Origin: Desulfobacula sp. | GTDB taxonomy: Bacteria; Desulfobacterota; Desulfobacteria; Desulfobacterales; Desulfobacteraceae | Assembly (NCBI GenBank): GCA_029940235.1 | Contig: JAOZRI010000055.1 | Coordinates: forward strand, 1 to 11,153 | Direction of reading: 5' to 3' | Length of the DNA stretch: 11,153 bases | In this document: positions 2,319 to 11,153 of the stretch, piece by piece | How the letters are laid out: each line of letters starts with the position of its first letter | Numbering within the stretch: position 1 is the stretch's first letter | The notes under the pieces: generated by a model | What the model was told of the DNA's origin: nothing | The model's input: only the letters and a program-made list of their open reading frames with translations | The model's database searches: none | Translations under genes and position numbers: made by a program

Positions 2319-2365
2319 GATTTATTATTTTCTTTAACTTAAACAATTAATAAAGGGTGATCAGC

Positions 2366-2581
2366 ATGGCAGACAAAAAAATATCTTTAAATATAGAAGG
2401 CATGAGTTGCTCTCATTGTTCAGGCATGGTTCAAAAGACTCTTGAAGGAATTGACGGCATTTGTAATATATCTGTGGATCTCGATGGGAACAAAGCTTAT
2501 TTTGAAACCACAGATGACAATCTTGTTGAAAAAGCTGTAAAAGAGGTGACTGAAGCAGGATACAAAGCATCAAAAGAGTAA
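2366..2581 (+). CDS. Heavy-metal-associated (HMA) domain metallochaperone
   Basis: A 71-residue single-domain HMA protein related to CopZ/MerP-type chaperones, which carry a soft metal ion (usually Cu(I); Hg(II) in MerP) between two cysteines. The metal motif is GMSCSHCSGMV (Cys15 and Cys18), and the rest follows the ferredoxin-like fold ending in the conserved EAGYKA. There is no signal peptide, so it is cytoplasmic, unlike true MerP. The ATG at 2366 is preferred, with AAAGGGTG upstream; an in-frame GTG at 2357 would add three residues but overlaps that ribosome binding site. It is the first gene after the promoter at 2275-2303 and lies 36 nt before hgcA, so it should be co-transcribed with hgcAB. 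A role in metal supply or protection for Hg methylation is possible; a copper chaperone is the conservative name. Confidence 0.92.
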   Translation: MADKKISLNIEGMSCSHCSGMVQKTLEGIDGICNISVDLDGNKAYFETTDDNLVEKAVKEVTEAGYKASKE

Positions 2582-2617: not shown

Positions 2618-3784
2618 ATGGGTAAGACAACCCAATCAGGTAGTACAATATCAACTCCGAGTGTAAATCTGATGGCTTCCATGGATGAAGCGACTTCAAG
2701 CTGCGCAATCCAGCCTGTGGATCCTAAAGCAATCTATGAAAAACCTGGATATAAGTTATACTCCTTTGTGGATAAATTCGTTAAAACAGATACAGGATTT
2801 ATACCAGTCATTAAATCAAAACTAGATAAAAATGATCTTGTTTCAACCTTTTTTGTCAGGTGTGGAGTCAATAGATATCAATATCGAGTAACACCAGGTC
2901 TTTATGGAATTGGAAAGCCAAATAAAAACAGTGAAGTTCTTGTGACTGCAAATTTCAAATTAACCTTTGATCATTTAAGAAAGGAACTTGGCAAAATAAA
3001 TGCCTGGATTCTGGTTCTGGATACAAAAGGGATCAATGTATGGTGTGCTGCAGGCAAGGGTACCTTTTCAACCATGGAAATTGTAAAAAGAGTTAAAGAG
3101 TGTTTCCTTGATAAAATTGTTGATCACAAACGTATCATTGTTCCTCAACTTGGTGCCACTGGAGTGTCTGCAAGGGATGTTAAAAAACAGTCTGGATTCA
3201 GAGTTATTTATGGCCCTGTACGTGCCAGTGATATTCCAATGTTTTTAAAAAACAGTAAAAAAGCAGATAAACAGATGAGACAGGCCACTTTTACAATTTA
3301 TGAAAGATTCATCCTCACACCTGTTGAACTTCAAAACACACTGAAACCAGCTTTAATTACTGCACTTGTCCTCTTAATCATTGCAGGCATAGGCCCTGGA
3401 ATTTTCTCTTTTGCACACATCTGGGAGAGAGGTATGATATCCATACTGGCTCTTGTTACAGGTATATTATCCGGTGCTCTTATAACTCCGGTACTGCTGC
3501 CTTTTATCCCTCCCAGAGAATTTGCCCTAAAAGGAATTATATCAGGAAGTGTTGTTTCTATTTTATTTTTAATTATGGGTTCTTCTATTATTGGTGGTAT
3601 AACAGGCTTTATGGCACTTTTTTTATTCAGCATAGCAATAAGCTCTTTTCTTGCCATGAATTTTACAGGAACAACTCCTTTTACTTCACCCTCGGGTGTT
3701 GAAAAAGAGATGAAACGATATATACCTGCCCAGCTTGGAGCTTTGGTGATTTCATCAGGGTTGTGGATATACTCTGCATTTTGA
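2618..3784 (+). CDS. hgcA: HgcA, corrinoid methyltransferase for mercury methylation
   Basis: HgcA transfers a methyl group from its corrinoid cofactor to Hg(II), making methylmercury. The diagnostic cap-helix motif NVWCAAGK occupies residues 140-147. Cys143 is expected to be the lower cobalt ligand. The soluble corrinoid-binding domain covers roughly residues 50-230. It is followed by a membrane domain from about residue 243 to the end with five hydrophobic segments, the known HgcA layout. The protein has 388 residues. From memory the ND132 protein has 338 with its ligand at Cys93, so this one carries about 50 extra N-terminal residues, Ser/Thr-rich with Cys29. The ATG at 2618 follows AAGGGG. 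It sits between the HMA gene and hgcB (19-nt gap). The NVWCAAGK motif separates it from acetyl-CoA-pathway CdhD/CFeSP proteins. Identification is near certain. Confidence 0.97.
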   Translation: MGKTTQSGSTISTPSVNLMASMDEATSSCAIQPVDPKAIYEKPGYKLYSFVDKFVKTDTGFIPVIKSKLDKNDLVSTFFVRCGVNRYQYRVTPGLYGIGKPNKNSEVLVTANFKLTFDHLRKELGKINAWILVLDTKGINVWCAAGKGTFSTMEIVKRVKECFLDKIVDHKRIIVPQLGATGVSARDVKKQSGFRVIYGPVRASDIPMFLKNSKKADKQMRQATFTIYERFILTPVELQNTLKPALITALVLLIIAGIGPGIFSFAHIWERGMISILALVTGILSGALITPVLLPFIPPREFALKGIISGSVVSILFLIMGSSIIGGITGFMALFLFSIAISSFLAMNFTGTTPFTSPSGVEKEMKRYIPAQLGALVISSGLWIYSAF

Positions 3785-3803: not shown

Positions 3804-4100
3804 ATGGAAGATTTAAAACTAAGACACCTTAAAGATGTATCAACTCTGGTGCTTGACAAGGAAAGATGTATTGGCTGTAGTTTATGCACTGAAGTCTGCC
3901 CCCAGGCAGTGTTTGAAATGCAGGATAACAAGGCGCACATTGTTGATTTTGACGCCTGTATGGAGTGCGGTGCCTGTGTTAACAACTGTCCGTCCCAGGC
4001 AATATCTGTCAGCCCTGGAGTTGGCTGAGCTTCCTATATTATCCAGGTGTGGATAAAAGGAGAAGAGAATGCATCGTGCGGTGATGGCGGGTGCTGCTGA
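3804..4100 (+). CDS. hgcB: HgcB ferredoxin, putative selenoprotein (Sec75 by TGA readthrough)
   Basis: HgcB is the 2[4Fe-4S] ferredoxin that reduces the HgcA corrinoid and is thought to pass Hg to it. Cluster motifs are CIGCSLCTEVCP (residues 22-33) and CMECGACVNNCP (52-63). The frame meets TGA at 4026-4028 (codon 75) directly after SPGVG, where the family has its strictly conserved Cys (Cys73 in ND132, from memory). Translation beyond it reads ASYIIQVWIKG and later SCGDGGCC, then TGA at 4098-4100. The last two residues, Cys97 and Cys98, match the C-terminal vicinal Cys pair of HgcB. Total length is 98, against about 95 in ND132. A SECIS-like hairpin follows the TGA. I therefore read codon 75 as selenocysteine; a nonsense mutation or sequencing error are the alternatives. 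The ATG at 3804 follows AAAGGA. Conventional gene calling would stop at 4028 with 74 residues. Confidence 0.88.
4026..4056 (+). promoter_or_regulatory. SECIS-like element after the in-frame TGA of hgcB
   Basis: After TGA (4026-4028), TTATCCA (4039-4045) and TGGATAA (4050-4056) pair as a perfect 7-bp stem closed by the tetraloop GGTG (4046-4049). Sixteen nt separate the TGA from the A of AGGTGT. In the E. coli fdhF SECIS, from memory, 17 nt precede AGGUCU, and the loop G and U are what SelB recognises. The stem position, short upper helix and GGU in the loop all match bacterial SECIS rules. The assignment was made by eye, not with a SECIS-search program or folding energy. Confidence 0.75.
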
Positions 4101-5214
4101 TAATATTATAATGGAAACAGACAAAAAACATAATTTCGGAAATGCAAATGATTCCCAGGAAACCCTTTTTTTGCAAATGGTCACAAACACCATTAGTGAC
4201 TTTAAAATGGTTGAAAAAAAGGATAAAATCCTTGTTGCAGTATCAGGCGGGGCTGATTCAATCTCTCTTGTACTCTCCCTGCTGGCTTTAAAAGACAGAT
4301 ATCAAATCAAGCTGGGCATTGCACACCTTAATCATATGTTAAGGAAAGAAGAATCCATAAGAGATGAGGTCTTTGTAAAACAGTTTGCCGACAGACTTGG
4401 TCTGCCTTATTTTTCCAGGCAGGTTAATGTAAAAGCCCATGCAAAAAAACATGGTTTATCTGTTGAGCAGGCAGGCAGGGAAGTTCGATATGCATATTTC
4501 CAACAGCTTGCCTGTGATCATGGATATACAAAAATTGCCACGGGCCATAACAAAGATGATAATGCTGAACTTGTATTAATGAATCTTCTGAGGGGGTCCG
4601 GACCAAAAGGGCTTTGTGGAATTCCACCTGTAAGAAACAACATTTATATCAGACCCCTGCTCAGGATATACAAAAGAGAGATTCTTGATTTTTTAGACTC
4701 CATCAATCAGGAGTATATGTTTGATTCTTCCAATGATGACATGACTTATTTAAGAAATAAAATCAGATGCAAATTACTTCCTCATCTTGTATCTGAATTC
4801 AATCCTGAAATTATTGATGCCTTGGACAGACTTAGCAATATATTAAAAACAGAAGAGGAGTATTTTGAGATTGAAACTCAAAAAGCGTATATGCTTTGTC
4901 TGCAAAAAACTGATGATCTATCTGTTGCTCTGTTTAAAACAAAATTGTCTGATCTTCACCCGGCAATTTTAAACCGGGTGATAAGAGAGGCGATCAGGGC
5001 CGTTAAAAACAACCTGAACCGGATTACTCTTGCCCATATTAATGATATTATCCAATTCTCTTTTAATGCTCTTTCAGGCACCAGCCTTGATCTGCCAGGT
5101 CAGATAAGAGTGTATAAAGAAAATAAAATTATTATTTTCAGAAAAGAGAAACAACCTCTACGGGATATGGGTAAAAAAGCAAAAGACCAACGATGGGCAG
5201 CACAAAAACAGTAA
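4069..5214 (+). CDS. tilS: tRNA(Ile)-lysidine synthase TilS
   Basis: TilS uses ATP and lysine to convert C34 of the CAU-anticodon tRNA-Ile to lysidine, so that it reads AUA codons; it is essential in most bacteria. The PP-loop ATPase motif SGGADS is at residues 59-64. It is followed by the family signatures AHLNHMLR, GHNKDDNAELVLMNLLRG and PLLRIYKREI, then a helical region. The C-terminal domain is shorter than in E. coli TilS. The start is uncertain. The ATG at 4069 has an excellent AAAAGGAG upstream but lies inside the proposed HgcB C-terminus (frame +1) and gives a 57-residue lead before the PP-loop, longer than usual. The ATG codons at 4111 and 4177 give more typical N-termini but lack a clear ribosome binding site. 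It appears to share the hgcAB transcript and precedes ftsH, a common neighbour. Confidence 0.94.
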   Translation: MHRAVMAGAADNIIMETDKKHNFGNANDSQETLFLQMVTNTISDFKMVEKKDKILVAVSGGADSISLVLSLLALKDRYQIKLGIAHLNHMLRKEESIRDEVFVKQFADRLGLPYFSRQVNVKAHAKKHGLSVEQAGREVRYAYFQQLACDHGYTKIATGHNKDDNAELVLMNLLRGSGPKGLCGIPPVRNNIYIRPLLRIYKREILDFLDSINQEYMFDSSNDDMTYLRNKIRCKLLPHLVSEFNPEIIDALDRLSNILKTEEEYFEIETQKAYMLCLQKTDDLSVALFKTKLSDLHPAILNRVIREAIRAVKNNLNRITLAHINDIIQFSFNALSGTSLDLPGQIRVYKENKIIIFRKEKQPLRDMGKKAKDQRWAAQKQ

Positions 5215-9302: not shown

Positions 9303-10082
9303 ATGCTTCTTGTGATTGATGTGGGTAATACAAATACAGTTATAGGTGTTTATAACGATGATACTCTTGAACAGGACTGGCGGATTCGAACAATACGGGA
9401 TACAACAGCTGATGAATTTAATATCCTTGCCAACTCACTTTTTGCAGACAAAAACCTTGAACGTGAAAAAATCACAAAAACCATTATCTCCTCGGTTGTT
9501 CCGTCAGCTGTTCCCATATTAAATGCTTTTTGTGAAAGATATTTAAAATTAACGCCCACATGGATAAATCCTGATTCTGTGAAAAAATTGATGCCTATTT
9601 TATATAATAACCCCAATGAAGTCGGCCCGGACAGAATTGTGAATGCAATAGCTGCCTATGCTATATATAAAACAGCCATGATAATTATTGATTTTGGAAC
9701 TGCCACAACTTTTGATGTCATATCCAGTAAAGGAGAATACCTTGGTGGAGCAATTGTCCCGGGTGTCATGATTTCTTCCGAAGCTCTTTTTCAAAAAGCA
9801 TCCAGACTTCCCAGAGTAGAAATATTCAAAGCCCCTGGCAGGGTTATTGGTAAAGATACAATTGAAAGTATAAAATCCGGTATTATATATGGGAATGCTG
9901 CCATGGTGGATGGCATGGTTGAAAGAATGGCAAAGGAGATGGAAACAAAACCAAAAATCCTGGCCACAGGCGGACTGGCTCCTTTAATTGCAGGCGCATC
10001 CCACACCATTGAAAAGATAGAGCAGTCACTGACACTGGATGGTCTGAAAATCATCAGTAATTTTATTGAGAATGGGTCGTGA
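9303..10082 (+). CDS. coaX: Type III pantothenate kinase CoaX
   Basis: CoaX phosphorylates pantothenate, the first committed step of coenzyme A synthesis. It is a cytoplasmic ASKHA-fold enzyme that needs a monovalent cation and is not feedback-inhibited by CoA in characterised members. Seen here: the phosphate-binding DVGNTNT at residues 6-12, GPDR at 108-111 (pantothenate/catalytic region), DFGTATTFD with Asp130, the GGAIVPGV segment, and ATGGLAPLI near the C-terminus. Its 259 residues match the family. The ATG at 9303 is preceded by AAGGAGAA at good spacing. It follows the YbbR gene in the same direction after two small hairpins, and its TGA overlaps the GTG start of the next gene by 4 nt. 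Confidence 0.97.
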   Translation: MLLVIDVGNTNTVIGVYNDDTLEQDWRIRTIRDTTADEFNILANSLFADKNLEREKITKTIISSVVPSAVPILNAFCERYLKLTPTWINPDSVKKLMPILYNNPNEVGPDRIVNAIAAYAIYKTAMIIIDFGTATTFDVISSKGEYLGGAIVPGVMISSEALFQKASRLPRVEIFKAPGRVIGKDTIESIKSGIIYGNAAMVDGMVERMAKEMETKPKILATGGLAPLIAGASHTIEKIEQSLTLDGLKIISNFIENGS

Positions 10083-11153
10083 AAAACCTTTTTATTCTAT
10101 TTTTAATTTTTCTCTATTCTCCTTACACTTTTGCTCTTGAACCAGAAGAAGTCCTTGTTGTTGCAAACCTTAATGTAAAAGAGAGTAAAAAACTTGCCCG
10201 ATTCTATATGGACAAAAGACAGATCCCCAAAAAAAATCTTGTTTTACTGTCCATTACGGATAAAGAGACCTGCACCAGGGATGAATATACAAAAACAGCC
10301 ATTCCCCCCATAAGAGAATTCTTAAATCATAACAATCATATAAGAGCTATTGTCACAATATTTGGAGTTCCCCTGAAGATTGCCTCTCCCGGTCGAACCA
10401 AAGCTGAAAAAACAAAATTACACAGGCTTGATAAATTAAAACAAAAACTTGAAAATCAACTGTTTCAAGATGAAACTATTGAAGCAAAAGCCAAGTCAGG
10501 AGAATCATCTAAATTATCAGATATAAAAAAAGAGATATCAGACTTTAAAAAATCAATCGACAAGGTGGCATCTTTTGATTCTGAATTAAGCCTTGTTAAA
10601 AAGGATAATTATGATCTTAATATGTGGCTGCCAAATCCATATTACCTCGGGTTTAGAAACCAGCCCCTTGATATCAAGCGTTCTGAAGTTTTAATGACAA
10701 GCAGACTTGATGGTGCCAGCGCAAAGATTGTAAAACGCATTATCAATGATACCATTGAAGCTGAAAAACAAGGAATCAAAGGTTCAGCATATTTTGATGC
10801 AAGGTGGAAAGACCCAGGCCAAGAAAAAAAACTTGAGGGCTATGCTTTCTATGACAGATCCATCCATGGAGCATCACAACTTCTTTTAAAAGAGAAAAGA
10901 ATCAATGTTGTACTCAATGATGAAAACACCTTATTTCAAGATGGGCAATGTCCTGATGCTGCACTTTACTGCGGCTGGTACAGCCTTGCAAAATACATTG
11001 ATTCCTTTAAATGGGTAAAAGGATCTGTGGGATATCACATTGCAAGTTCAGAGTGTACAACCTTAAAAAAAAAACACAGCCAGGTGTGGTGTAAAAAGAT
11101 GCTGGACAATGGGATTGCAGCAACAATAGGCCCTGTGGGAGAACCTTATGTCC
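10079..11153 (+). CDS. TIGR03790-like secreted protein, 3' truncated by window end
   Basis: An open frame of 358 codons running off the window edge. It starts at a GTG (10079-10081) within the GTGA overlap with coaX, which implies translational coupling. The first 20 residues form a signal peptide (MKNLFILFLIFL then SPYTFA, likely cleaved before LEPEE), so the product is exported. EEVLVVANLNVKESKKLARFYM and, near the visible end, SVGYHIASSECTTL plus IAATIGPVGEPY resemble the uncharacterised TIGR03790 family found in deltaproteobacteria and others (recognised from memory). A Lys/Glu-rich segment near residues 105-175 may be coiled coil and looks like an insertion. No enzyme activity is known. 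The stop codon and C-terminus lie outside the window. Confidence 0.8.
   Translation, partial: MKNLFILFLIFLYSPYTFALEPEEVLVVANLNVKESKKLARFYMDKRQIPKKNLVLLSITDKETCTRDEYTKTAIPPIREFLNHNNHIRAIVTIFGVPLKIASPGRTKAEKTKLHRLDKLKQKLENQLFQDETIEAKAKSGESSKLSDIKKEISDFKKSIDKVASFDSELSLVKKDNYDLNMWLPNPYYLGFRNQPLDIKRSEVLMTSRLDGASAKIVKRIINDTIEAEKQGIKGSAYFDARWKDPGQEKKLEGYAFYDRSIHGASQLLLKEKRINVVLNDENTLFQDGQCPDAALYCGWYSLAKYIDSFKWVKGSVGYHIASSECTTLKKKHSQVWCKKMLDNGIAATIGPVGEPYV

What the first reader, a model, noticed from the sequence alone, without database searches (positions are those of the whole stretch)
3804..4100. HgcB appears to be a selenoprotein: TGA replaces the essential mercury-handling cysteine
Seen: the hgcB frame has TGA at codon 75 right after SPGVG, continues open for 23 codons, and ends in GGCC then TGA. 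The continuation restores normal HgcB length (98 residues) and the C-terminal vicinal Cys pair. Known: HgcB has a strictly conserved Cys (Cys73 in ND132) between the second cluster motif and the C-terminal pair, proposed to bind Hg and hand it to HgcA; in ND132 the pair is 94/95. Codon 75 here matches that Cys (23 residues before the last Cys, against 22). Inference: the position is Sec. Selenolate binds Hg(II) far more tightly than thiolate, so a Sec-HgcB could change Hg capture, transfer rate or selenium dependence of methylmercury formation. I do not know of a described Sec-HgcB, but I cannot search.
Basis: partly seen in the sequence, partly recalled or inferred. Interest (0 to 1): 0.96.

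Follow-up and report, generated by a model that had tools for sequence, protein, structure and literature searches.

The report
Selenocysteine version of mercury-methylation protein HgcB
In this bacterium the gene for HgcB, one of the two proteins that make toxic methylmercury, has a UGA codon exactly where relatives encode a key cysteine, and it is likely read as the selenium amino acid selenocysteine, so methylmercury formation would depend on selenium; such an HgcB was already predicted in print, but the same codon sits in all 55 hgcB genes found in the genomes searched of the host's family.

Summary
hgcB (3804-4100) has an in-frame TGA at 4026-4028 (codon 75). The frame continues 23 codons to GGCC and a real TGA stop. 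The site aligns with the cysteine that is residue 73 in Pseudodesulfovibrio HgcB. It is not a sequencing slip: TGA stands there in 55 of 55 hgcB genes found in 86 genomes of the host family, and in 9 genes from 8 genomes of other families. A hairpin follows the TGA: full 7-pair stem plus GG loop in 60 of 61 distinct TGA sequences, 0 of 86 Cys homologues. Its three Ile codons show no synonymous change across 56 tree rows; other fully conserved multi-codon positions outside its upper stem show 6-19. The genome has selA, selB, selC and a selD with its own TGA. The TGA genes form one clade (SH-aLRT 100): one switch, no reversal seen. But it is not a new discovery: a 2026 review lists HgcB "GVGU", citing Haft & Gwadz 2023. 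What may be new is the family-wide fixation, single origin and frozen SECIS. Whether selenium changes mercury handling is untested.

The parts
2618..3784 (+). hgcA, corrinoid protein of mercury methylation, 388 aa; keeps an ordinary Cys in NVWCAAGK
   Evidence: NF040863 427.8 bits, cut-off 275
3804..4100 (+). hgcB with in-frame TGA, 98 codons plus stop; dicluster ferredoxin
   Evidence: NF040864 123.3 bits, cut-off 99
4026..4028 (+). TGA codon 75, predicted selenocysteine, on the Cys73 column
4031..4062 (+). Predicted bacterial SECIS hairpin: upper stem 4039-4045 with 4050-4056, loop GGTG 4046-4049, lower stem 4031-4035 with 4058-4062
   Evidence: MFE -11.8 kcal/mol over 4026-4066, z -2.68; upper stem 7 of 7 pairs in 61 of 61 distinct TGA sequences, against 2 of 86 Cys sequences; stem codons frozen; lower stem varies
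4089..4100 (+). C-terminal GGC-TGC-TGC end (Cys pair) and the true TGA stop; the pair is restored only by read-through

Best explanation
The hgcB gene here carries a UGA at the codon of the essential Cys73 and is likely translated into a full-length selenoprotein, in which a hairpin just after the UGA is predicted to recruit SelB and the selenocysteine tRNA. Shown: the codon, its alignment with Cys73, the open frame to the C-terminal Cys pair, the frozen hairpin sequence, the sel genes and the single-clade distribution. Inferred: that selenocysteine is really inserted. Also inferred: that its selenolate does the job of the Cys73 thiolate, as a ligand for Hg(II) or for the CH3Hg+ product passed on by the C-terminal Cys pair (the role proposed for Cys73 in PMC7305189, passages), and that methylmercury formation in this family therefore depends on selenium.
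For: TGA at the Cys73 codon in 55 of 55 hgcB genes found in the 86 family genomes searched (all 55 read at DNA level). Full stem plus GG loop in 60 of 61 distinct TGA sequences and 0 of 86 Cys ones. No synonymous change at the three stem Ile codons (ATT, ATC, ATA) and one at Gln, against 6-19 at the other fully conserved multi-codon positions outside the upper stem, over 56 tree rows, although hgcA of the same rows uses ATT 558, ATC 505, ATA 242. Cys homologues use ATC, ATT and ATA at the first two of these sites. selA 588.7, selB 356.2, selC 76.5, selD 368.3 bits, all over cut-off; selD has its own in-frame TGA. selB over cut-off in 54 of 62 other TGA-hgcB genomes. One clade, SH-aLRT 100. Cys73-to-Ala abolished Hg methylation in ND132 according to PMC7305189 (passage), so a 74-residue stub lacking it should be inactive.
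Against: No protein or selenium measurement. Raw reads of this assembly were not available. 8 of 62 genomes lack an over-cut-off selB match: G772, G762 and G742 have none at the threshold; G769, G775, G737, G629 and G752 weaker matches only. Seven of these are rated under 92% complete, but G752 is rated 100% complete (1270 contigs, 7% contamination). Two loops read GGGC and one AGTT instead of GGTN. 5 of 63 distinct TGA tails do not end in CC (L192, L208, L209, L210, L212). Over the longer stretch 4020-4075 the fold is not unusual (z -1.17). No Rfam family reached its threshold in the window. One database homologue (P0002) has Leu at the site.
Confidence: 0.94

Rival explanations
1. The TGA is an ordinary stop: this lineage makes a 74-residue HgcB without the third Cys and without the C-terminal pair.
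For: Gene callers read it so: 67 of the 120 listed database homologues end exactly at GVG.
Against: The downstream frame is conserved: 58 of 63 distinct TGA tails end in CC, and the hairpin codons are frozen. Cys73 is essential in ND132 (PMC7305189, passage). Behind a true stop the tail should decay over such divergence.
Confidence: 0.03
2. TGA is reassigned as a sense codon genome-wide (for example Trp), or read by a near-cognate tRNA, without selenium.
For: The frame is open on either reading.
Against: hgcB and hgcA of the window both end in TGA. The column is Cys in the 96 other loci, not Trp. A full set of sel genes is present.
Confidence: 0.01
3. A sequencing or assembly error turned TGC or TGT into TGA.
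For: The window comes from a fragmented assembly of 615 contigs, 78.69% complete.
Against: The same TGA is in 55 of 55 family genes and in 64 distinct coding blocks.
Confidence: 0.01
4. Selenocysteine is inserted, but as protection: selenium traps mercury or resists oxidation and is not what makes methylation work.
For: Selenolates bind mercury very tightly (recalled), which could slow release.
Against: The site is the one whose loss abolishes methylation in ND132 (PMC7305189, passage), which argues for a place in the working path. Neither reading was tested.
Confidence: 0.25

Closest known systems
HgcB selenoprotein, NF040864, motif GVGU (Haft & Gwadz 2023, J Bacteriol 205:e0025922, as listed in PMC13188914)
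   Same: Same family and same motif GVGU, hence the same residue (passages).
   Different: That paper was not read (not held), so I cannot say which organisms it covers. The family-wide count, single clade and codon freezing are measured here.
Cys-HgcB of Pseudodesulfovibrio (ND132 type)
   Same: Two CxxCxxCxxxCP motifs, GVG-C73-A, C-terminal Cys pair, hgcA upstream.
   Different: TGT in L079 and L080 in place of TGA; 1 or 2 of the 7 stem pairs; residue 73 of 95 against 75 of 98.
HgcA selenoprotein, NF040863, motif CU (PMC13188914 table)
   Same: Partner protein in the same pathway, also listed with Sec.
   Different: The HgcA of this window keeps Cys in NVWCAAGK, as do the TGA loci in which that motif was found; where a TGA was seen in the frame of their hgcA I read it as the stop or beyond it, from the ends shown.
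SelD (selenophosphate synthase) of the same genome
   Same: In-frame TGA, codon 28; precedent within the genome for recoding.
   Different: A different protein; its recoding is predicted too.

Membership tests
HgcB (NF040864) | Score over curated cut-off | tested here: met
   123.3 bits against 99 with read-through; stub 101.8
HgcB (NF040864) | Two CxxCxxCxxxCP cluster motifs | tested here: met
   CIGCSLCTEVCP and CMECGACVNNCP
HgcB (NF040864) | Third conserved Cys after the second motif | tested here: met
   Position met, but by a TGA codon; Sec is predicted in place of Cys
HgcB (NF040864) | C-terminal Cys pair | tested here: met
   Cys97/98, only with read-through
HgcB (NF040864) | Directly downstream of hgcA | tested here: met
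   hgcA 2618-3784, 427.8 bits
HgcB (NF040864) | Mercury methylation activity | not testable with these tools
   needs culture
Bacterial selenoprotein gene | In-frame TGA aligned with Cys in homologues | tested here: met
   70 TGA against 96 TGC/TGT of 166 loci
Bacterial selenoprotein gene | SECIS-like hairpin just after the TGA | tested here: met
   7 of 7 pairs in 61 of 61, GG loop in 60; loop GG from the 18th nt after the TGA. The rule for distance and loop G is recalled
Bacterial selenoprotein gene | selA, selB, selC, selD in the genome | tested here: met
Bacterial selenoprotein gene | Conserved TGA in relatives | tested here: met
   55 of 55 in the family genomes searched
Bacterial selenoprotein gene | Selenium in the protein | not testable with these tools
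   75Se or mass spectrometry needed

The most novel reading that the evidence does not exclude
Mercury methylation in a whole bacterial family is locked to selenium: one ancient Cys-to-Sec switch in HgcB, fixed with a frozen SECIS, never undone in the 56 lineages on the tree, and carried along when hgcAB moved into other families that also decode Sec. Selenium supply would then control part of environmental methylmercury formation.
Probability: 0.45. Interest if true: 0.75.

Novelty: new member of a known kind. Interest (0 to 1): 0.5.

Why it matters
If right, a whole family of putative mercury methylators would need selenium at an HgcB residue whose loss abolishes methylation in ND132, linking two element cycles in a directly testable way. 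It also warns that gene callers cut these HgcB proteins at GVG: 67 of the 120 listed database homologues end there, and those of them that show a name in the listing bear generic iron-sulfur or ferredoxin-type names, so counts of complete hgcB from metagenomes may miss them.

Tried and rejected
Rejected: ordinary stop, code reassignment and sequencing error (see rivals). An idea that Val in QVW is imposed by the hairpin loop was dropped: P0005-P0007 and P0025 are Cys-type HgcB with QVW. TGA flags in G226, G039, G213, G277, G265 and G569 were checked at DNA level: all six have Cys at the site; in five the TGA is the stop after the Cys-rich end, and in G265 it lies in the tail. A heavy-metal chaperone gene upstream as a conserved partner was dropped: it is in the window and in L051, its close relative, while the four other TGA loci with enough upstream DNA lack it; 52 TGA loci were too short to tell. 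Solved structures: the 58 PDB sequences matched are named as other ferredoxin-type proteins, none as HgcB. Rfam: nothing in the window. One search was a pattern used only to learn the genome handle.

Full report
What is there. The window holds hgcA (2618-3784, NF040863 427.8 bits, cut-off 275) and hgcB (from 3804). hgcB meets a TGA at 4026-4028 after SPGVG, stays open for 23 codons, and ends in GGCC and TGA at 4098-4100. With the TGA read as a residue the protein has 98 residues, keeps both cluster motifs and regains the C-terminal Cys pair; it scores 123.3 bits for HgcB against a cut-off of 99.

Which residue. In two Pseudodesulfovibrio records (L079, L080) the aligned Cys is residue 73 of 95; in the window the site is residue 75 of 98. 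In ND132, changing Cys73 to Ala abolished methylation, and changing both terminal Cys lowered it by 95% (PMC7305189, passages read). A stub ending at residue 74 would lack all three.

How widespread. In the host's family (86 genomes held) 55 have hgcB over the cut-off, and all 55 carry a TGA; read at DNA level, all 55 have it at this codon. In a sample of 389 genomes of the order, 164 have hgcB over the cut-off: 48 in the family and 116 outside it (my count from the table). For 12 of those 116 the matching row was not listed; of the other 104, 8 genomes (9 genes) have TGA at the site. In a sample of 395 genomes of the phylum, 115 have hgcB over the cut-off; of six such rows flagged TGA only the window's own has it at this site. 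One further row there, flagged TAG (G172), was not fetched. A scan of the wider collection of bacterial and archaeal genome contigs found 173 relatives and kept the best 80; of these, 43 gave the site, 5 with TGA (L051-L055, all MAGs titled Deltaproteobacteria or Desulfobacterales/Desulfobacteraceae) and 38 with Cys. Other phyla were not surveyed further.

The hairpin. The RNA from 4026 to 4066 folds at -11.8 kcal/mol (z -2.68; 1 of 200 shuffles as good). The upper stem starts at the 11th nt after the TGA and its loop starts with GG at the 18th. All 61 distinct TGA sequences keep the 7-pair stem and 60 have GG at the start of the loop (L206 has AG); of 86 distinct Cys homologues 2 pair fully (L061, L063), 7 have GG there, and none has both. 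Against this: a longer stretch (4020-4075) gives a weak z of -1.17, and the lower stem is not constant.

Selection on RNA, not protein. In 64 distinct TGA blocks the codons at +4, +5, +8 and +9 are ATT, ATC, TGG, ATA in all and +6 is CAG in 63. On the tree these Ile codons need 0 synonymous changes and Gln 1; every other multi-codon position whose residue is constant in the 56 rows needs between 6 and 19. Val at +7, in the loop, varies in its third base, as a loop base may (8 changes). All three Ile codons are common in hgcA of the same rows (ATT 558, ATC 505, ATA 242). This internal control shares the same tree, so short divergence does not explain the freezing.

Machinery. The genome (78.69% complete) has selA, selB, selC and selD, each over its curated cut-off; the selD frame contains a TGA of its own (codon 28 by the sequence). 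Among 62 other genomes with TGA-hgcB, 54 have selB over the cut-off; 8 do not, listed under evidence against. Of the 8 TGA genomes outside the family, 7 have a full selB; G629 has only a piece at a contig end. selA, selC and selD were sought in the window's own genome only.

History. A tree of HgcA plus HgcB with the site and tail left out (134 rows: 56 TGA, 78 Cys; quick method, SH-aLRT only; repeats and loci without enough hgcA were dropped from the 166) puts all 56 TGA rows in one clade with support 100 and needs one change. The direction Cys to Sec is inferred from the wide spread of Cys; the tree is not rooted. Seven TGA rows from six other families sit inside the clade (L215-L219, L221, L223), and one genus, g304, holds both kinds (G440 and G482 TGA, G536 Cys). 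That means transfer of hgcAB or contigs binned to the wrong genome; not resolved. Two TGA genes (L220, L222) had no hgcA in reach and are not on the tree.

What is known. PMC13188914 (passages) lists HgcB, NF040864, GVGU, and HgcA, NF040863, CU, as selenoproteins, citing Haft & Gwadz 2023. PMC11588087 says that some hgcA and hgcB homologues may be selenoproteins (passage). The 2023 paper itself is not held, so I cannot say whether it reports the family-wide pattern, the hairpin or the single origin. Four library searches (listings only, and the list was capped at 15 of 3,128) showed me no other paper on it. The prediction of Sec-HgcB is thus prior art.

Annotation. Of the 120 listed database homologues (239 found), 67 end at GVG, 52 read GVGC and 1 GVGL. 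Some named examples of the cut kind are called 4Fe-4S binding or dicluster protein, including Desulfobacula sp. (P0023) and Desulfobacula phenolica (P0101). The host genus is perhaps Desulfobacula or close to it; that is inference from these names.

Verdict. A selenoprotein gene by the sequence tests run here, a new member of a described kind, with a striking fixation across a family. Selenium in the protein and its effect on mercury remain to be measured.

Noticed in passing
window 2357-2581 (+): A small heavy-metal-associated (HMA) chaperone gene lies just upstream of hgcA; L051, a close relative, has it too, while the four other TGA loci with enough upstream DNA lack it.
   Followed up: partly
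window 4069-5214 (+): The tilS frame as listed starts inside the read-through hgcB; the ATG at 4111, just after the hgcB stop, looks like the likelier start.
   Followed up: no
L018 1528-1530: selD of the same genome has an in-frame TGA near its 5' end, codon 28 from the ATG at 1447.
   Followed up: partly
L208, L209, L210, L212 and L192: Five TGA-hgcB genes do not end in CC; L209 has a further TGA before the Cys pair. A second recoding, base errors and tail decay were not told apart.
   Followed up: partly
L216 and L217 (G629): One genome bears two different TGA-hgcB genes that fall apart on the tree; two copies or a mixed bin.
   Followed up: no
P0002 (database protein): A full-length homologue of the TGA kind with Leu at the site; a possible loss of Sec or a base error.
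   Followed up: no
window 10079-11152 (+): A long open frame running off the window without any Pfam match at E 0.001.
   Followed up: no
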